Part shown: positions 51 to 6,989 of the stretch, piece by piece
Layout of the letters: every line of letters begins with the position of its first letter
How positions within the stretch are numbered: position 1 is the stretch's first letter
Assembly (NCBI GenBank): GCA_021804185.1
Contig: JAJZKL010000054.1
Location: forward strand, 1 to 6,989
Direction of reading: 5' to 3'
From: Thermoplasmata archaeon
Lineage (GTDB): Archaea > Thermoplasmatota > Thermoplasmata > Thermoplasmatales > Thermoplasmataceae
DNA: 6,989 nt
Translations under genes and position numbers: made by a program
Notes under the pieces: generated by a model
Told to the model about the DNA's origin: nothing
Databases searched by the model: none
The model's input: the letters and a program-made list of their open reading frames with translations, nothing else

Positions 51-1394
51 CTATTGTAACTTTCCGGTAGCATGTTTTCCAGCTATGTATCCTCCAACGA
101 TGGCCATCAACAGACCACTACCGCTGAGGTAACCTGTTGATCCGCGGCCAGAAATGCCGGCCGCTGCATCACCGACGGCATACACAGTATCGGACGTCCT
201 GACCCCAACTTCAATGGCTCTCATGAACCTGTCTGTTCTTATGCCGCCGAGGGTATGGAATAGAGCAGGGAATATTTTCGCGCAGTGTAATGGAAAAATC
301 CTGGTTTCCCTTGATGACTTTTGGAGGATACTGGTGGTAAGAAATCCCACGGATGTCTGAAGTTTTTCCTTATTAGCCCCGGTATAATCGGCAAGTTCAT
401 CAATACTGTGGCAATGTCTAAATCCTCCAACGGACTCAGTCAGGCGGAAATCCGAATAAAGATCGTACATCTCTGAATATATTCCATCTGGAATTAATTC
501 AAAGCCGAAACTACCCTCCTGGGATGAAAGTTTCGATGCAAACTCTGAATAACCTATCTTTTCTTCTGCAAATCTTGATCCTTGGCTATTTATTATGATT
601 GAACCTTTCATAACGGATTCCCATGAAATAAGAGTTCCAACCGCAGACAAGGACGAGTGTGCCTGATATGAATCCATGTTTGAAAGCTGAAGTCCAAGGT
701 CTTTCGCAATGGAAACTGCAGTCCCGTCATGAAATGTGCTTCCGAAATATTTTAGATTCACTGCATCTGGAATATATCTTGATAGAAGCCGTTTATTTGC
801 ACCGAAGCCCCCTGTAGCCACAACAAATTTCTTTGATTTCAACAACTCATCAGTACCTTCAATGACAACAGACAAACTTCCTGATACAGTGTCCTTTTTC
901 AGTTTAGCTCTTCTGCCTGTAACAATAGTCAGGTTCGGTGTATTTTCTGCTTTTTTTCTCATTGCAGTGACCAGATCCGAGCCAGACCTGCTAGCTGGAG
1001 AAACAATACTGAAGCTGGTATAGCCATAGTATTTGAACTCAGTTACAGGGATTAATTGTAGCCCAACATAATCAGCAAACCAGTCAGCGACGTTCCCGGA
1101 CTGTTTGCACAACTCCATCACAAGTTCCGGGTTTGCCTCACCGTGATTCATGCGCATTATGTCATTAAATATTTGTTCAGGAGGGAAATCAAAACCTTGC
1201 TGCAACTGAAATCTGCTGTTGGCCACTGGAAACATTCCTTGTGTTTCAAGTGTGTGCCCGCCATATACCTCCGTTCTTTCAAGTATCAGAACTTCAGATC
1301 CTGATTCCGCAGCAGAAAGACCAGCTACCAGACCTGATCCACCGGCGCCGAGGACGATAACATCAAAAGTGGATAATTCATTCTCATTGCCCAT
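51..1394 (-). CDS. FAD-dependent dehydrogenase/reductase, fumarate reductase flavoprotein-like (FAD_binding_2 family)
   Basis: A cytosolic flavoprotein of 447 residues with no signal peptide or membrane segment. Seen: the FAD-binding Rossmann motif GAGGSG at residues 16-21 with the ribose-binding Glu39; TGGFG at 194-198; HDGTA at 222-226; GSRFAEE at 272-278; HTLGG at 380-384; and the C-terminal FAD motif VGDAAAG at 407-413. This order is that of soluble fumarate reductase, tricarballylate dehydrogenase, urocanate reductase and 3-ketosteroid dehydrogenase. His246 and His380 fit the two active-site His of fumarate reductase, but by-eye alignment puts Tyr282 and Tyr422 where that enzyme has its catalytic and substrate Arg, so a plain fumarate/succinate enzyme is unlikely. 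I chose ATG 1394 because a TATA-like box lies 26 bases upstream and only ten residues precede the first strand; an in-frame GTG at 1439 would add 15 residues. It is divergent from the lyase gene and may supply an unsaturated acid to the hydratase. The family is firm; the substrate is unknown. Confidence 0.85.
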   Translation of the reverse strand: MGNENELSTFDVIVLGAGGSGLVAGLSAAESGSEVLILERTEVYGGHTLETQGMFPVANSRFQLQQGFDFPPEQIFNDIMRMNHGEANPELVMELCKQSGNVADWFADYVGLQLIPVTEFKYYGYTSFSIVSPASRSGSDLVTAMRKKAENTPNLTIVTGRRAKLKKDTVSGSLSVVIEGTDELLKSKKFVVATGGFGANKRLLSRYIPDAVNLKYFGSTFHDGTAVSIAKDLGLQLSNMDSYQAHSSLSAVGTLISWESVMKGSIIINSQGSRFAEEKIGYSEFASKLSSQEGSFGFELIPDGIYSEMYDLYSDFRLTESVGGFRHCHSIDELADYTGANKEKLQTSVGFLTTSILQKSSRETRIFPLHCAKIFPALFHTLGGIRTDRFMRAIEVGVRTSDTVYAVGDAAAGISGRGSTGYLSGSGLLMAIVGGYIAGKHATGKLQ

Positions 1395-1416
1395 ACTTTT
1401 GGATATTATTCCTTGG

Positions 1417-1430
1417 AATTTAATTCTAAT
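1417..1430 (-). promoter_or_regulatory. TATA-like promoter of the flavoprotein gene
   Basis: On the minus strand an AT-rich element reading GAATTAAATT (1426-1417) is centred about 26 bases upstream of ATG 1394, the usual archaeal distance from TATA box to transcription start. No Shine-Dalgarno sequence lies at normal spacing, so the message is probably leaderless. This is the main argument for the 1394 start over the GTG at 1439. Confidence 0.45.
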
Positions 1431-1453
1431 TTCATTCACCCCAAAAAGAGACG

Positions 1454-1460
1454 TTATATT
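1454..1460 (+). promoter_or_regulatory. TATA-like promoter of the lyase gene
   Basis: TTATATT is centred 24 bases upstream of ATG 1481. The sequence between contains no Shine-Dalgarno motif, so transcription probably starts at or next to the ATG. This spacing excludes the upstream TTG codon at 1463 as the start, because it would lie before the predicted transcript. Confidence 0.5.
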
Positions 1461-1480
1461 CCTTGTTCAGATTACAACAC

Positions 1481-2296
1481 ATGTCACTGATTGATATTAT
1501 CAAAAATGAAACTATACTTGCTCCCGGTGTATACGATCCCCTTTCGGCCCTGATTGCACAAAAGGCGGGATTCAAAGCTCTTTATCTCAGTGGTGCCAGT
1601 ATATCATATACTTATTTGGGGATGCAAGATCTATCATTCACTAATCTCACAGATGTAGAGAGCGCACTGCGCAGAATTAAGAATCGTGTGGATGTGCCCA
1701 TCATCTGCGATGCCGACACCGGATACGGAAATGAGGATAATGTTGCATACACTGTAAGAGTTCTCGAGAGGTCTGGGGCTTCCGCCATACAGTTAGAAGA
1801 TCAGAATTCTCCTAAGAGATGCGGCCATCTTGCAGGAAAGGAAATCATACCTGCCCAGGAAATGGTCCTGAAGATCAAGACAGCCGTTGCAGCAAGGAGA
1901 GATGCTGCGATAATTGCTAGAACTGATGCAATAACTGTATCTGGAATTGAAGAGGCTATTTTCAGAGCTAATATGTATATGGATGCAGGTGCTGATATAG
2001 CGTTTGTGGAATCCCCCAGGAATAAGGAGGAAGTGAACAGGATTGCCAGAGAGGTTCAGGGCTTAAAACTCATCAATATGGTGGAGGGGGGAAAGACACC
2101 AATAATGGATTTCAAGGACCTCAGGAGTATTGGATTCAATATTGTTATTTTCCCGGGATCCGCCGTCAGGACTGTGACATACGCCATGGAAAATCTTTTC
2201 CGAACCCTTTATGACACCGGTTCAACCACTGCTTACAGGGATAGAATGCTTGATTTCAATCAGCTCCAGGACATTCTTCGACTGCAAATGAAATAA
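1481..2296 (+). CDS. Isocitrate lyase/PEP mutase superfamily C-C lyase (2,3-dimethylmalate lyase- or methylisocitrate lyase-like)
   Basis: A cytosolic Mg-dependent TIM-barrel lyase of 271 residues, close to the usual 280-300. It should cleave a 2-hydroxy (or 2-hydroxy-tri-) carboxylate to pyruvate or glyoxylate plus another acid. Seen: PGVYDPLSA at 15-23; the substrate-binding YLSGAS at 35-40; metal-binding DADTGYGN at 77-84; EDQ at 106-108; the catalytic loop KRCGHLAGK at 112-120 with Cys114 as general acid, marking a lyase rather than PEP mutase; ARTDA at 146-150; and NMVEGGKTP at 199-207. The EGG in the last motif differs from the EFG I recall for E. coli PrpB and looks closer to the dimethylmalate lyase, oxaloacetate hydrolase and decarboxylase groups. 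ATG 1481 is preferred over TTG 1463 because of the TATA spacing. The gene converges with the hydratase operon, which would make its substrate. Superfamily and lyase chemistry are firm; the substrate is inferred. Confidence 0.88.
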   Translation: MSLIDIIKNETILAPGVYDPLSALIAQKAGFKALYLSGASISYTYLGMQDLSFTNLTDVESALRRIKNRVDVPIICDADTGYGNEDNVAYTVRVLERSGASAIQLEDQNSPKRCGHLAGKEIIPAQEMVLKIKTAVAARRDAAIIARTDAITVSGIEEAIFRANMYMDAGADIAFVESPRNKEEVNRIAREVQGLKLINMVEGGKTPIMDFKDLRSIGFNIVIFPGSAVRTVTYAMENLFRTLYDTGSTTAYRDRMLDFNQLQDILRLQMK

Positions 2297-2301
2297 AAAA
2301 A
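2295..2301 (-). terminator. T-run terminator for the amidohydrolase-hydratase operon
   Basis: Read on the minus strand, seven T residues follow the stop codon of the LeuD-like gene by about 18-24 bases, inside an AT-rich stretch with no clear hairpin. Archaeal RNA polymerase stops at such T-runs. The run overlaps the stop codon (2294-2296) of the convergent lyase gene, so the two transcripts would overlap at their 3' ends. Confidence 0.5.
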
Positions 2302-2318
2302 TTCATAAATCGACAAAT

Positions 2319-2837
2319 TTAGTCCCAGAAAGGAGACAGATCAAGAAGACCTTTCTTCTTCAGTACCTCGATGATTCCGCCCGAATCCAAGATTTCCAGC
2401 AGGAATAAGGGTAGAGGCTTAAAATTGATGACTTCTCCGGTTGCAGCCGTTACCGCTCCCCGGTCAAGGTCAACAGAAATTCTATCCCCCTCGGATACAC
2501 TGGACCTGATACCCGGCACTGTTGCAATGGGTAGGCCGAAATTGACGGAATTTCTGAGAAACAGGCCGTTAACTGATTCTGCAATAACGCACGAAATACC
2601 CAGTCCCTTTAGGTTCGCAGCTGCAGGTCTTGAAGACCCCATGCCAAAATTTCTGCCGGCAACCAGAATATCTCCTGCTTGAACCATTTCAGCCCAGCCA
2701 GGTCTATTTGCCCACATGGTGTATCTAGGTCTCTCGTTCTCAGAAACTGTGTAGCATATGTGCGGGTACATCAGGTCAGTGTTTATGTTATCGCCAAAGA
2801 CCCAGGCTTTTCCAACATATCTGTGATCAGTTGACAT
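2319..2837 (-). CDS. Aconitase-family hydro-lyase, small (swivel) subunit, LeuD-like
   Basis: A 172-residue swivel-domain subunit, normal LeuD length, that would pair with the upstream large subunit to hydrate or dehydrate a branched dicarboxylate. Seen: VFGDNINTD at 13-21, the family's entry motif; GDILVAGRNFGMGSSR at 55-70, the phosphate/carboxylate-binding loop; FLRNSVNFGLP at 93-103. Two departures stand out. The residue after GSSR is Pro71, where isopropylmalate isomerase and homoaconitase usually have Glu (GSSRE). The substrate-recognition loop after YP reads HICYT, matching neither the YLVY-type loop of isopropylmalate isomerase nor the YLRT-type loop of homoaconitase. The gene overlaps the large subunit gene by 11 bp, and a weak GGTGG lies 8 bases before its ATG, so translation is probably coupled. 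A leucine or homoaconitate role is less likely than a catabolic hydratase such as a dimethylmaleate hydratase-type enzyme. Confidence 0.88.
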   Translation of the reverse strand: MSTDHRYVGKAWVFGDNINTDLMYPHICYTVSENERPRYTMWANRPGWAEMVQAGDILVAGRNFGMGSSRPAAANLKGLGISCVIAESVNGLFLRNSVNFGLPIATVPGIRSSVSEGDRISVDLDRGAVTAATGEVINFKPLPLFLLEILDSGGIIEVLKKKGLLDLSPFWD

Positions 2838-4122
2838 CTCTGGCCACCCTCAGGTATTTTCTTGGATCCGTTATTCTGCTTTCAATTGCGGAGGCGGCCA
2901 CAGTTGCAGAGGATGCAAGATATATACTTGCGCTTCTAGATCCCATTCTGCCCTTGAAATTCCTAGTGGTTGAGGTTATGCCAACTTCATTGTCCCCAAG
3001 CAAACCCATATGTCCACCGAAGCATGATCCACAAGTGGCGTTTGTAACTATGCCTCCTGCTTCAGTTATTTCTTTAACATATCCAAGTTCAAGCGCCTGC
3101 CTGTAAATCTCCTGGGTGGCAGGGGTGACTACTAGTCTTGTGTCCCTGCTTATCTTTCTTCCCTTTAGTATCCTAGCGGCAATTTCCAGATCATGGAGCC
3201 TGCCATTTGCGCATGATCCTATGGTCGCCTGGTCAATATGGATGTCCCCCAAATCAGCCACCGCCCTGATATTCCTGGAAACAAAATCCGGCAAAGCTAC
3301 CATGGGCTCCAGATTGGACAGGTTTATGTCATATTCGGATTTGTAGGTCGCATCTGGTTCAGGCTCAATCTTTCCATGGGACGGTAAACCTTTTTCTTCC
3401 ATATACTTCTGCAGCACGCTGTCATAAGGGAACACAACGAATTCAGCCCCTAATTCAGCGCACATTGTTGAAATCACAGCTCTTTCATCGATTGATAGAC
3501 TTTCAATGCCGGTTCCATGAAACTCTATGTTCTGGTCTGTTGCATCTCCAATATCCTGGGCCATCTTAAGGAAAACATCCTTTGCCTCAGTTCCAAGCGG
3601 CAGCTTACCATTTAGGTTAACCTTTATGGTGTTGCCCACAATGTACCACGTCTCCCCCGTACAAAGCACCTGCATCAGTTCCGGCATGCCTAACCCACGC
3701 CCCAGAGAATTATAGGCTCCCATGGCAATCGTATGGGAATCTGTGTTTGCTATAATCATACCTGGTCTGATGAAACCTTCCTGGGCCAGAAGAGCATGAG
3801 ATATTCCGCCCCTTCCGTAATCATAAAAGTTCTTGACGCCCCATCTTTGAACCAACTTTCTGATCTTTCTGTTTCCGTCAGCAACATCGGTAGTAGGGGC
3901 AGGCACAAGATGGTCGAAGATTATTGCCACTTTGTCAGGATCGAAAACAGACTTTGGGGGGTTTCTGAGGAATTCCGGGTGTAGGCCCGCCATATCCAGA
4001 AGCACGGCGAAATCCACCTTGACCCTTACTATGTCTCCAGGCTCTATTTTCCCTGACTTATTAACCGAGTGTAAATAGAGTATCTTCTCAATAATGTTCA
4101 TACCGTGAACCCACTGCGTCAC
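2827..4122 (-). CDS. Aconitase-family hydro-lyase, large 4Fe-4S subunit, LeuC-like
   Basis: A 431-residue catalytic subunit, about the length of archaeal LeuC/homoaconitase large subunits. Seen: GMNIIEKIL at 7-15 (family start GMTxxEKIL); NTDSHT at 126-131; TGETWY at 155-160; IGSCANGR at 301-308; CGSC at 364-367; STTRNFKGRMG at 384-394. Cys304, Cys364 and Cys367 are spaced 60 and 3, the spacing of the 4Fe-4S ligands in E. coli LeuC, so the cluster should be intact. GTG 4122 overlaps the amidohydrolase stop as GTGA, a coupling arrangement; ATG 4101 is an alternative that would start at the family's own GM motif. It forms one enzyme with the LeuD-like subunit next downstream. No leucine genes are present; the neighbours are a cyclic amidohydrolase and a convergent C-C lyase, which suggests that it hydrates an unsaturated dicarboxylate in a degradative route. 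Aconitate-type or isopropylmalate-type substrates remain possible. Confidence 0.9.
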   Translation of the reverse strand: MTQWVHGMNIIEKILYLHSVNKSGKIEPGDIVRVKVDFAVLLDMAGLHPEFLRNPPKSVFDPDKVAIIFDHLVPAPTTDVADGNRKIRKLVQRWGVKNFYDYGRGGISHALLAQEGFIRPGMIIANTDSHTIAMGAYNSLGRGLGMPELMQVLCTGETWYIVGNTIKVNLNGKLPLGTEAKDVFLKMAQDIGDATDQNIEFHGTGIESLSIDERAVISTMCAELGAEFVVFPYDSVLQKYMEEKGLPSHGKIEPEPDATYKSEYDINLSNLEPMVALPDFVSRNIRAVADLGDIHIDQATIGSCANGRLHDLEIAARILKGRKISRDTRLVVTPATQEIYRQALELGYVKEITEAGGIVTNATCGSCFGGHMGLLGDNEVGITSTTRNFKGRMGSRSASIYLASSATVAASAIESRITDPRKYLRVARDVN

Positions 4123-5558
4123 GCGACTGGTCTTTTTATATACTCACCCAGAGGATCACCAAACTTTCCGTCTGAATAGGTGACGTTGCCTCTCAGTATT
4201 GTATACTCCGGTTGACCATACAGTTCGAGCCCTTCAAATGGGGTGAAATCTTGTGCCGAATGCAGGTCCTGATATCTTATTTTTCTCTTCTTATTAATAT
4301 CAAGAATAACCAGATCGCCATCAAAGCCTAATGCAATATCCCCTTTTCTCCCATATAGAGAATGGACCCTGGCGGGATTTGCTGTTATCAGTGATGCAAG
4401 TTTCTCCAGTGGTATCTTTCTCTCGACGTAGCCCCCGGTAATTATTGCAGGGAGCAACAGTTCTGTGGCGCCATAGCCATTCTCTGCCGTCCATAACTCA
4501 TTGCCCTTTCTGGATTCTTCTATGGCTGCGTGGTCTGATCCGACGGTGTTGATCATACCATCAATTATACCTTTCCACAGAAAATCTCTGTCGTCTCCAG
4601 ATCTTATGGGCGGATTAACCTTTCCATGTATCCCAGCATCGGAATTCACGGTTAATGTGAGGTGGGAAGGAGTTGTTTCTACATACACATCGACGTCCGG
4701 GAACTGGCGTTTCATTTCATTAATTGTTTCAAGGGCTAATCGGCTGCTTACATGAAGCAAGTTAATGGGGCAGTGAGTTTCATGGGCAAGTTCGAAGGCT
4801 TCAATTATGGCTATGCGTTCAGAACTGGGAGGTCTGGCCTTGCTGTATGCCTGAAGAGGATTCAGTTTCTCCCTGTCCATCTCTTCTCTTGTTTTTTCTA
4901 GGTTTATCCTTATGATTTCGGCGTCTTCTGCATGAATGCTTAATCTTACGTTGCCGTAATTTTCATTTACTTCTGAAATCTTTTTCATTATGTTGTACAT
5001 GTGACCAAGATCGTACGGCTCATCAGAAAGAAGATATTCTTTCTCCACGGAACCTTTCTTAACCTCACTCTTGAGGTTGAGACCCTTGTAGAACATGTAG
5101 TACTTGAATGTCGACACTCCGTTCTTGGAGACAAGCTCAGGGATTTCCTCAACGTGCTTCTTCAGTATAGGGGCAAGATTAAAACCGTAATCCGTGTAAA
5201 AATTACCCGCCGATTGTTCAAGCACCTTCTTGAAGAGAGATGAATATGGCTCGGAAGTATTCATATAGTTCTTCCCAGAACGAAAATAACTCAGTATTGT
5301 AGTAACTCCACCGGCTGCTGCACTGGCGGACTCAGATCTCGCATCATCTGAAAATGGGCGGTAAATTCCCACATGAAAGTGAGAATCAACTACTCCAGGA
5401 AACACATACTTGTTTCCAGCATCGATCACTTTCTTTGCATCATTATTTATGTGATCGGCAATGGCGACGAATTTTCCGGCCTCAATACCAATATCTGCTT
5501 TCCTGACACCTTTGCCCGGAAAAACAACGTGACCGTTTCTCACTATTAGGTCCATCAT
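4119..5558 (-). CDS. Hydantoinase/dihydropyrimidinase-like cyclic amidohydrolase
   Basis: A 479-residue cytosolic amidohydrolase that should hydrolyse a cyclic amide bond (hydantoin, dihydropyrimidine, cyclic imide or lactam) with a binuclear metal centre. Seen: DSHFH with His60 and His62; AAAGGVTT at 80-87; TFKYYMFYKG at 150-159, where Lys152 should be the carboxylated metal bridge and Tyr157 the carbonyl-binding Tyr; HAED with His209; LLHVSS with His269; TTPSHL at 295-300; KVNPPIR at 313-319; GSDHA with Asp342; and GDLVILD near the C-terminal small domain. All metal ligands are present. H60/H62/K152 match the spacing in D-hydantoinase, but K152 to H209 is about 24 residues longer, so the loop beside the active site is extended. 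ATG 5558 (or ATG 5555) lies right at the expected transcript start. It is the first gene of the operon. No carbamoylase or half-amidase gene is visible, so the second step is missing here or not needed. Dihydroorotase is unlikely. Confidence 0.88.
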   Translation of the reverse strand: MMDLIVRNGHVVFPGKGVRKADIGIEAGKFVAIADHINNDAKKVIDAGNKYVFPGVVDSHFHVGIYRPFSDDARSESASAAAGGVTTILSYFRSGKNYMNTSEPYSSLFKKVLEQSAGNFYTDYGFNLAPILKKHVEEIPELVSKNGVSTFKYYMFYKGLNLKSEVKKGSVEKEYLLSDEPYDLGHMYNIMKKISEVNENYGNVRLSIHAEDAEIIRINLEKTREEMDREKLNPLQAYSKARPPSSERIAIIEAFELAHETHCPINLLHVSSRLALETINEMKRQFPDVDVYVETTPSHLTLTVNSDAGIHGKVNPPIRSGDDRDFLWKGIIDGMINTVGSDHAAIEESRKGNELWTAENGYGATELLLPAIITGGYVERKIPLEKLASLITANPARVHSLYGRKGDIALGFDGDLVILDINKKRKIRYQDLHSAQDFTPFEGLELYGQPEYTILRGNVTYSDGKFGDPLGEYIKRPVA

Positions 5559-5756: not shown

Positions 5757-6989
5757 TTAACTTCCTGAACTGACTTCGTATACTTCAAGTGTTCCGTTTC
5801 TGACAACCAGAGAATTGTTCACGGCCAGTTCATAGAGGTCAAAGTAGTGAGTGATGGAGCCGTCAAGCTGCGATACACTATGCACGGTCTTGGAGGTCAC
5901 AGCATGGTTATATGTCAATGCGGTAATCACGTTGTCCACAATAGTCCCTGCAAAGAAACCGTCCCCAACAACCGTCGTGTCATTGCTGTATGTCGTATTA
6001 TAATCACCTGAAGTACCGTTGATATCATATGAAACAAGTGTGTAGTCCGTTATGTTCCTGATCTGTGTAACATTGAAACCAATCCCAATGCCCGTGAGAT
6101 CACCACTGCTGTTAAGGTATATGAATTCAGAGGAGGTACCGTTGATCTGGAAATATTCCTGCTTGATGTTCAAGATGCTAATATGGCCATATGCCGGGCC
6201 ACCGCTGGAATTAAACAGGTAGTATGTAGAGGTGTCGAAGTATGTTATGCTTTCATTGAGGTAAAAATTCTCCACAATTGGAATGACATATCCAGAACTC
6301 GTGGGAATAACAATATCTGCACTTGGATCATATTCAGTTGCGTTCGCGAAGAACGAGTCAGTTTTAAGAATGCTGTAATCTGCAAGATATGCGCTTGTTG
6401 TTGTGATGCCAGATGAAGCCAGTATTTCAGTGACGCTGTTGCTGTCATTAAGGAATGCTGCGGATGCCGGAATGGATTCTGTTGTCAGGTTTGTCTGGGG
6501 ACTCTGGAAATAGGAATCATTGAAACTGAATGTGCTGGAGATCATATGTGAGACAGCTGTTTCCTGTGTTGTGTTTATCATGAAGTTCAAGGCAGATCTG
6601 ATCCAGAGGTTCTCGTCATTGATTACTTCCACCTTAATTGTCCTGGTTCCATGAAGCAGTGAGAGATATGGTGAAAGATTGATGACATGAGGAGGATACA
6701 CCTCAGCACCTATGCCCAGAATGGGCTGCCACAGGAACAGATCCCCGCCACCGGTCTGAATATTCGGATACGGCTCCACTGTTGCCACAAGTTCGTTTCC
6801 GATAAATATCCTGAATTCCCTGAATGGAGGCTGCAAGGTATACCAGAACTCGTCGTTTCCGTTCTGCTGCTCATAGAAGTTGATATAGGCCGAACTGATG
6901 TTTTCAGGGAAGGTAACATTTGTCGTTCTGGTAACATTGAACGGTATTGGCACATTGTTGGGGAATGCATTTCTGGGCGTTGGAAAACC
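5757..6989 (-). CDS. Peptide:N-glycanase A-like exported protein (PNGase A family), 5'-truncated by the window edge
   Basis: The visible 410 residues run in frame to the right edge, so the start, any signal peptide and the first part of the PNGase A domain are outside; the GTG at 6953 is not the true start. Numbering from that codon, the match to the PNGase A family is: a strand reaching DEFWYTL at 34-40; FREFRIFI at 44-51 with PYP at 61-63; TGGGDLFLWQPILGIG at 67-82; PPHVINLSPYLSLL at 87-100; then the TIKVEV strand. The remainder is Ser/Thr/Asn-rich and probably beta-structured, with no C-terminal membrane segment. It has no Cys, very few Lys and about 20 N-X-S/T sequons, which fits an extracellular, heavily glycosylated acidophile protein. 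Plant PNGase A removes N-glycans from glycopeptides; whether the archaeal relatives do so is not something I can establish. It is separated from the amidohydrolase operon by 198 bp and seems unrelated to it. Confidence 0.78.
   Translation of the reverse strand, partial: GFPTPRNAFPNNVPIPFNVTRTTNVTFPENISSAYINFYEQQNGNDEFWYTLQPPFREFRIFIGNELVATVEPYPNIQTGGGDLFLWQPILGIGAEVYPPHVINLSPYLSLLHGTRTIKVEVINDENLWIRSALNFMINTTQETAVSHMISSTFSFNDSYFQSPQTNLTTESIPASAAFLNDSNSVTEILASSGITTTSAYLADYSILKTDSFFANATEYDPSADIVIPTSSGYVIPIVENFYLNESITYFDTSTYYLFNSSGGPAYGHISILNIKQEYFQINGTSSEFIYLNSSGDLTGIGIGFNVTQIRNITDYTLVSYDINGTSGDYNTTYSNDTTVVGDGFFAGTIVDNVITALTYNHAVTSKTVHSVSQLDGSITHYFDLYELAVNNSLVVRNGTLEVYEVSSGS

What the first reader, a model, noticed from the sequence alone, without database searches (positions are those of the whole stretch)
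51..5558. Possible undescribed catabolic module: cyclic amidohydrolase, flavin dehydrogenase, LeuCD-type hydratase and PEP-mutase-superfamily lyase
Seen: five adjacent genes in three transcription units whose reaction types chain logically: ring opening, C=C formation or reduction, hydration, then C-C cleavage. Established: in anaerobic nicotinate breakdown a LeuCD-like dimethylmaleate hydratase and a PEP-mutase-superfamily dimethylmalate lyase form the last two steps, after an amidohydrolase ring opening (enamidase). Tricarballylate use couples a related flavoprotein to aconitase. Inference: the archaeon degrades a cyclic amide or imide, or an alkylated dicarboxylate, to pyruvate or glyoxylate plus an acid such as propionate or succinate. 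The middle nicotinate enzymes (B12 mutase, isomerase, nicotinate dehydrogenase) are absent here, so this is not simply that pathway.
Basis: partly seen in the sequence, partly recalled or inferred. Interest (0 to 1): 0.75.

Follow-up and report, generated by a model that had tools for sequence, protein, structure and literature searches.

The report
Imide-to-glutarate catabolic gene module
Five neighbouring genes of an uncultured archaeon belong to a gene set that recurs in distant microbes and probably opens a nitrogen-containing ring and splits the resulting acid into glutarate and a keto acid, perhaps to consume fragments of chlorophyll or haem.

Summary
The five genes are real and form a recurring module. 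Of 11 genomes with the ring hydrolase (AH) among 400 of the class, 9 (own included) have LeuC or LeuD beside it. The set AH, LeuC, LeuD, PEP-mutase-superfamily lyase also occurs in a second Thermoplasmata family, Sulfobacillus-type bacteria, Armatimonadota and Bipolaricaulota, with the flavoprotein in some. The host (93 percent complete) shows no homocitrate/isopropylmalate synthase and no LysX, so LeuCD is not biosynthetic there; it has a separate PrpB. LeuC groups with lysine-pathway homoaconitases. One Sulfobacillus-class operon runs LeuC-LeuD-lyase-AH-FAD-CaiB-glutaryl-CoA dehydrogenase, pointing to glutarate. Many other bacteria pair the same AH with a PrpD-like gene, CaiB and a CitE-like lyase. 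Best reading: a cyclic imide with an acidic side chain is opened to a homoaconitate-like acid, hydrated, and cleaved to glutarate plus a 2-oxo acid; haematinic acid from tetrapyrroles fits best. No reaction is shown. Against it: that dehydrogenase adjoins the module in one locus only, and 0 of 8 archaeal genomes searched has a close homologue.

The parts
4119..5558 (-). AH: binuclear-metal cyclic amidohydrolase of the allantoinase/hydantoinase/dihydroorotase class; proposed ring (imide) hydrolase
2827..4122 (-). LeuC-type large subunit; proposed homoaconitate-like hydratase
   Evidence: over cut-off of the archaeal-type families PRK00402 and hacA_fam; tree
2319..2837 (-). LeuD-type small subunit of the same hydratase
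   Evidence: over cut-off of LEUD_arch, 140.4 of 108.95 bits; loop shared with homoaconitase-type relatives
1463..2296 (+). PEP-mutase/isocitrate-lyase superfamily lyase, PrpB-like paralogue (likely start ATG 1481); proposed glutarate-releasing lyase
51..1439 (-). FrdA/TcuA-type flavoprotein (likely start ATG 1394); proposed dehydrogenase of the saturated ring or acid
   Evidence: flavocytochrome c and TcuA models, under cut-off; Tyr in place of urocanate reductase's Arg, 12 of 12 rows, two of them second copies of others
1395..1480 (.). divergent gap between the likely starts of lyase and flavoprotein; possible shared control region
   Evidence: read from the sequence; no promoter scan was run

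Best explanation
The genes encode a catabolic module for a cyclic imide that carries an acidic side chain. AH hydrolyses the ring to a half-amide (inferred). The amide is removed by a clustered isochorismatase-type or cyclase-type hydrolase in other carriers, and in this host by a gene elsewhere or spontaneously (inferred). LeuCD hydrates the maleate-type, homoaconitate-like tricarboxylate (inferred from its kin). The lyase cleaves the product to glutarate plus a 2-oxo acid (inferred from its residues and from a CaiB gene and a glutaryl-CoA dehydrogenase in one operon). The flavoprotein probably dehydrogenates the saturated form of the ring or acid (inferred). Best candidate substrate: haematinic acid (2-methyl-3-carboxyethylmaleimide), giving a methyl-homoaconitate and finally pyruvate plus glutarate. 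Shown here: gene families, recurrence of the set, and lack of the biosynthetic partners. Not shown: any reaction or substrate.
For: Recurrence of AH with LeuC/LeuD in 9 of 11 class genomes and in 9 of 80 loci of the species scan, 8 of those 9 with the lyase; in 15 other wide LeuC loci no AH or lyase hit. LeuCD label arises at least 4 times in changes on the AH tree and module LeuC has at least 2 origins. No synthase or LysX match in the host; a second LeuC outside the module in 3 of 3 bacterial module genomes. LeuC groups with homoaconitases, whose loci L033 and L035 hold homocitrate synthase over cut-off. G002 keeps AH, lyase and carrier together without LeuCD and has a homoaconitase-type LeuCD elsewhere. 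Lyase Arg. L191 operon with CaiB and a dehydrogenase whose best PDB matches are glutaryl-CoA dehydrogenases. Isochorismatase-family gene in 6 of 6 f15 loci. Natural occurrence of haematinic acid (passages of PMC7318184).
Against: No enzyme activity. Glutaryl-CoA dehydrogenase homologue adjoins the module in one locus only of those scanned, and 0 of 8 archaeal genomes has one above 38 percent identity. CaiB scores 319-408 bits where the glutarate CoA-transferase model asks 750, and in PDB a formyl-CoA transferase ties with the glutarate-type enzyme. The small-subunit loop differs among modules (YPHICYT, YLKL, YLER). 18 of 80 AH loci show no hydratase or lyase of either kind. No amidase gene beside the window genes. 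Roles of R67, R93 and the lyase Arg are inference.
Confidence: 0.45

Rival explanations
1. Dicarboxylate version: AH opens a dialkylmaleimide without an acidic chain; LeuCD works as dimethylmaleate hydratase and the lyase as dimethylmalate lyase, giving a 2-oxo acid plus propionate or another short acid.
For: Best PDB match of the lyase is petal death protein, which is known for alkylmalates (name, activity recalled); dimethylmalate lyase is third. The lyase has EGG where the four PrpB sequences aligned have EFG.
Against: The Arg of SAxR is kept in 18 of 18 lyase rows but absent from both petal death protein and dimethylmalate lyase in the printed alignments; LeuC groups with homoaconitases; glutaryl-CoA dehydrogenase and CaiB in L191.
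Confidence: 0.17
2. Six-membered imide version: AH opens a citrazinate-like ring to an aconitate monoamide; LeuCD acts as a dedicated (methyl)aconitase and the lyase as (methyl)isocitrate lyase, giving succinate plus glyoxylate or pyruvate.
For: AH shares KVNPP with the host's dihydroorotase, an enzyme of a six-membered ring with a carboxylate. The citrazinate to aconitamide step is recalled; one search listed no paper on its genes.
Against: The host already has an aconitase-sized LeuC-like ORF and a PrpB set, so dedicated copies would be redundant; glutaryl-CoA dehydrogenase in L191.
Confidence: 0.12
3. Ureide version: AH opens a hydantoin or dihydropyrimidine; the clustered isochorismatase and RidA-type proteins of relatives handle the ureido acid as in the Rut pathway; LeuCD and lyase serve a separate propionate or citramalate route.
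For: The isochorismatase-family proteins match biuret amidohydrolase and RutB models, under cut-off; a RidA-family gene lies in L088; AH matches hydantoin-5-propionate amidohydrolase models, under cut-off.
Against: A ureido acid gives no maleate-type acid for LeuCD, so the constant LeuCD-lyase company would be unexplained; no AH equivalog cut-off for a ureide hydrolase is reached.
Confidence: 0.15
4. LeuCD is the genome's leucine or lysine enzyme and its neighbours are unrelated.
For: It is the only LeuC homologue in the host besides an aconitase-sized ORF, and its close kin sit in lysine loci.
Against: No synthase and no LysX match in the host; the same company in several phyla.
Confidence: 0.03

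Closest known systems
End of anaerobic nicotinate fermentation: enamidase, dimethylmaleate hydratase, 2,3-dimethylmalate lyase (recalled)
   Same: Amidohydrolase ring opening, LeuCD-type hydratase, PEP-mutase-superfamily lyase
   Different: Lyase has the Arg that dimethylmalate lyase 3fa3 lacks; no B12 mutase or isomerase seen by eye in the 20 kb around the window; glutarate-type downstream genes in L191
Methylcitrate pathway lyase PrpB (TIGR02317)
   Same: Fold, KRCGH loop, SAxR Arg
   Different: 275.3 bits against a cut-off of 354.4; a separate PrpB at 413 bits in the same genome
Homoaconitase of the lysine (aminoadipate) pathway
   Same: 53-66 percent identity in LeuC, same LeuD loop
   Different: No homocitrate synthase or LysX in the host; different gene company
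Allantoinase, D-hydantoinase, dihydroorotase, imidase (cyclic amidohydrolases)
   Same: Fold and metal ligands
   Different: Under every equivalog cut-off; GIYR and SYFR motifs; the host has another dihydroorotase-like gene
Tricarballylate dehydrogenase TcuA / flavocytochrome c
   Same: Family; TcuA also makes an aconitate-type alkene (recalled)
   Different: 116.5 and 155.5 bits, under cut-offs 369 and 285.45; Tyr in place of the urocanate reductase Arg
Itaconate breakdown by CoA-transferase, hydratase and CitE-like lyase (RipABC)
   Same: Second set beside AH has CaiB and a CitE-like gene whose best model is RipC, under cut-off
   Different: AH, cyclase-family and MmgE/PrpD-family genes are added; window set has LeuCD and a PrpB-like lyase instead

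Membership tests
Methylisocitrate lyase PrpB | score over the curated cut-off of TIGR02317 | tested here: not met
   275.3 bits, cut-off 354.4; host has another gene at 413
2,3-dimethylmalate lyase | no Arg at the SAxR position, as in 3fa3 | tested here: not met
   Arg in 18 of 18 rows; Gly in 3fa3. That this position defines the family is my inference
PEP-mutase/isocitrate-lyase superfamily lyase | fold and catalytic KxCGH loop | tested here: met
   Cys, Gly, His invariant in 15 of 15 rows
Isopropylmalate isomerase of leucine synthesis | isopropylmalate synthase in the genome | tested here: not met
   no match to a homocitrate/isopropylmalate-synthase-type query in G000 (genome 93 percent complete)
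Homoaconitase of lysine synthesis | homocitrate synthase and LysX in the genome | tested here: not met
Homoaconitase-like substrate range | hydration of homoaconitate-type tricarboxylates | not testable with these tools
   kinship only
Cyclic amidohydrolase class | binuclear metal ligands H-x-H, Lys, His, His, Asp and the fold | tested here: met
Imidase (cyclic imide hydrolase) | hydrolysis of cyclic imides | not testable with these tools
   no sequence marker known to me
Fumarate/urocanate reductase type flavoprotein | catalytic Arg (role recalled) | tested here: not met
   Tyr in 12 of 12 rows where the printed urocanate reductase has Arg
Nicotinate fermentation cluster | B12 mutase, isomerase and nicotinate dehydrogenase genes | tested here: inconclusive
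   not seen by eye among ORFs of L003; no search of the genome was made
Glutarate route (CaiB glutarate CoA-transferase plus glutaryl-CoA dehydrogenase) | both genes present with the module | tested here: inconclusive
   both in one operon in L191; dehydrogenase at 55 percent or more in 5 of 5 bacterial module genomes, none above 38 percent in 8 archaeal genomes; CaiB under cut-off

The most novel reading that the evidence does not exclude
A widespread, undescribed pathway for tetrapyrrole-derived maleimides: haematinic acid and its dihydro form (from chlorophyll ring D) are dehydrogenated by the flavoprotein and opened by AH, and the methyl-homoaconitate is hydrated and cleaved to pyruvate plus glutarate. 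One version uses LeuCD plus a PrpB-like lyase; the other a PrpD-like dehydratase, CaiB and a CitE-like lyase acting on CoA esters.
Probability: 0.3. Interest if true: 0.88.

Novelty: new variant of a known kind. Interest (0 to 1): 0.7.

Why it matters
Chlorophyll is made and broken down on a 10^12 kg scale each year, and haematinic acid and maleimides have been reported from leaves and lake sediments (passages of PMC7318184; that study itself found haematinic acid but no maleimides in its leaves). The listings of searches showed me no microbial gene set that consumes these small pieces. The module offers named, expressible enzymes to test. Even if the substrate proves different, it is a recurring archaeal and bacterial gene set that today is labelled only dihydroorotase-like, methylisocitrate-lyase-like and isopropylmalate-dehydratase-like.

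Tried and rejected
Biosynthetic role of LeuCD: rejected. The lyase as the housekeeping PrpB: rejected. Fumarate/urocanate-type reductase: unlikely. Nicotinate pathway proper: not supported by neighbours read by eye; its other enzymes were not searched for. Literature: searches (listings) showed me no paper on this module; one listed one paper (isoprene metabolism, not read), 84 listed none, and 83 was swamped by general biodegradation papers (12 shown of 25,347). Papers seen: passages only of PMC7308503, PMC7609661, PMC8669743 and PMC7318184. Structure models gave no coordinates in the Python box, so the pocket arginines could not be measured against the metal site. That dialkylmaleamates fall apart at acid pH, which could make an amidase dispensable in an acidophile, is recalled; one search gave only a listing. 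Roles of single residues in known lyases, dihydroorotase and reductases are recalled.
Full report
What is there. The window lies in a 1.76 Mb genome of 96 contigs, 93 percent complete. Public records of two relatives with the module are titled Thermoplasmata archaeon (L070 has the contig length of G005:C64 and L071 that of G389:C6). AH, LeuC and LeuD overlap end to start on the minus strand; the lyase is on the plus strand; the flavoprotein is on the minus strand. Beyond the flavoprotein lie a small CMD-family protein and an MFS carrier whose best model is the aromatic acid:H+ symporter family, under its cut-off. The carrier is 69 percent identical to one beside AH and the lyase in G002 and 47 percent to one beside the module in G005.

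Recurrence in archaea. In the own genome and 40 relatives, LeuC relatives of 53 percent identity or more occur in 8 relatives. Five of the eight wide loci (L033, L035, L036, L037, L039) hold a homocitrate-synthase-type gene in the fetched stretch (cluster C44); in L033 and L035 that gene, and in L035 also LysX and LysZ, pass curated cut-offs. L034 is a 7 kb contig that I count as the same type from its likeness to L033; L040 was not put through the clustering. In the eighth, L038 (G005), LeuC stands in the same five-gene set as in the window: lyase, LeuD, LeuC, AH, then the divergent flavoprotein; its LeuC is interrupted. In the other 15 wide LeuC loci of that call, none holds AH or the lyase; two hold a 23 percent flavoprotein hit. 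Searching 400 class genomes with AH gave 11 at E 1e-60 or better. Of these, 9 have LeuC or LeuD in the fetched stretch: the own genome, G005, G389 (a 5 kb contig with LeuC, AH and flavoprotein only) and six of family f15. The other two are G002 (lyase and carrier beside AH) and G290 (flavoprotein and, by eye, a MmgE/PrpD-type gene).

Recurrence in bacteria. A scan of one genome per species confirmed 92 AH loci, of which the best 80 were kept (L070 and L071 are G005 and G389). LeuC or LeuD is present in 9 of 80, with the lyase in 8 of these 9: unnamed bacteria L074 and L087, Bipolaricaulota L088 and L143, Armatimonadota L090 and L091, Sulfobacillus benefaciens L097, and the two archaea. L097 reads MFS, GntR, LeuC, LeuD, lyase, AH, flavoprotein on one strand. 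Around L097's genome, 5 of 151 genomes of the class carry AH at E 1e-90 or better, itself included: G552 has the set twice (L191, and L195 with AH in two pieces), G508 has LeuC, LeuD, lyase, CaiB, AH (L192), and G516 and G520 have the other set described next; these two match L096 and look like L147 of the first scan.

A second set with the same logic. Of the 80 loci, 51 hold a MmgE/PrpD-family gene, 48 a cyclase-family hydrolase, 56 CaiB, 31 a CitE-like lyase, 20 an isochorismatase-family hydrolase; LeuCD and PrpD-like genes never meet (0 of 80); 18 of 80 show no hydratase or lyase of either kind (families on one representative each). The AH tree forces at least four changes of the LeuCD label, and module LeuC has at least two origins (that tree flags long branches, so the placing of the bacterial rows is unsure). 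I read this as two interchangeable ways to hydrate and split the acid that AH releases (inference).

Not biosynthetic. The host shows no match to a homocitrate/isopropylmalate-synthase-type query and none to LysX; G005 has one 30 percent synthase-like hit and no LysX. The host's only other LeuC-like gene is a 923-codon, aconitase-sized ORF, not typed further. In the three bacterial module genomes examined (G402, G403, G404) a second LeuC lies elsewhere. The host also has a PrpB over the family cut-off next to a PrpD-like gene and, by eye, a citrate synthase, so the window lyase is a distinct paralogue.

Chemistry. A lyase of this superfamily splits a 2-hydroxy-3-carboxy acid into a 2-oxo acid and a carboxylate, and a LeuCD hydratase makes such an acid from a maleate-type alkene (family chemistry, recalled). 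In the tree the LeuC of G000, G005 and G389 falls in a clade with the six homoaconitase-type rows (support 99/98), as a fork of its own at 86/92. The small-subunit loop LMYPHICYT is shared with those relatives; a flexible loop of the small subunit sets substrate preference in this family (passages of PMC7308503). In Sulfobacillus the loop reads YLKL where the solved homoaconitase small subunit reads YLRT and the solved isopropylmalate/citramalate isomerase YLVY: a basic residue in the same place. L087 and L091 read YLER, so this sign is mixed. The lyase keeps an Arg that is present in the three PrpB-type or CPEP-mutase-named chains printed and absent from petal death protein and dimethylmalate lyase, in 18 of 18 rows, one a second copy; that it holds a third carboxylate is inference. 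AH has R67 and R93 in 40 of 40 rows picked, in the loop after HxH and at the end of strand 2, near where the host's dihydroorotase-like protein has RDPG and MPNN (the alignment has gaps there); that they hold a substrate carboxylate is inference.

The product. In L191 AH is followed by the flavoprotein, a CaiB-family gene and an acyl-CoA dehydrogenase, each start overlapping the stop before it. The dehydrogenase's best PDB chains are a putative glutaryl-CoA dehydrogenase (490 bits) and mycobacterial ones (426, 420); a chain named only acyl-CoA dehydrogenase scores 392, the human glutaryl enzyme 382, and the next other enzyme 234. In NCBIfam it reaches no cut-off; a glutaryl-CoA dehydrogenase model is third at 222 bits. 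CaiB's best model in L191, L192, L088, L063 and the host is succinate-glutarate CoA-transferase, at 319-408 bits against a cut-off of 750; in PDB a formyl-CoA transferase and the succinate-hydroxymethylglutarate CoA-transferase tie. If glutarate is released, the acid before it must be of homoisocitrate type and the alkene of homoaconitate type; with a methyl on the alkene this is the ring-opened, deamidated form of haematinic acid (my chemistry). Against this: the dehydrogenase adjoins the module in one locus only, and in 8 archaeal genomes the best match is 38 percent identical, 33 in the host, while all 5 bacterial module genomes searched have one at 55 percent or more. The host's single CaiB gene lies near thiolase- and enoyl-CoA-hydratase-family genes in a locus also present in G005, which allows but does not show glutarate use.

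Substrate. Haematinic acid and maleimides are oxidation products of chlorophyll, reported from leaves and lake sediments (passages of PMC7318184; PMC8669743, on maleimides as pigment products). The dihydro ring D of chlorophyll would give a saturated imide, for which a TcuA-like dehydrogenase is a natural partner (inference). An amidase is clustered in other carriers (isochorismatase family in 6 of 6 f15 loci) but not beside the window genes; the host has five isochorismatase-family genes elsewhere. I put this specific substrate at 0.3 and the wider imide-to-glutarate reading at 0.45.

Verdict. A real, recurring catabolic module built from known enzyme families, for which my searches found no description; substrate unproven; worth the bench work listed.

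Noticed in passing
window 5757-6989 (-); L003:57-2693: C-terminal part of an 878-codon PNGaseA-family protein (PF12222) next to the module.
   Followed up: no
L038:4608-5871 and L195:7280-8712: Module copies with LeuC (G005) or AH (G552, second copy) in two pieces; decay or assembly error cannot be told apart here.
   Followed up: no
L003:8377-8793; L061:340-729: A small CMD-family protein goes with the MFS carrier beside AH in G000 and G002 (48 percent identity); role unknown.
   Followed up: no
L063-L068: Family f15 loci also hold a second AH-like gene, an ADC-family protein (best NCBIfam model MppR, under cut-off), an Amidohydro_2 protein and CaiB: perhaps a longer version of the pathway.
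   Followed up: partly
L083-L148, actinobacterial and other AH loci: A second recurring set AH, cyclase, MmgE/PrpD, CaiB, CitE-like (51 of 80 loci have the PrpD-like gene), which deserves its own study.
   Followed up: partly
protein hits P0021 and P0023: 60 percent identical AH relatives are named from Sulfodiicoccus acidiphilus and Saccharolobus caldissimus; their neighbourhoods were not fetched.
   Followed up: no
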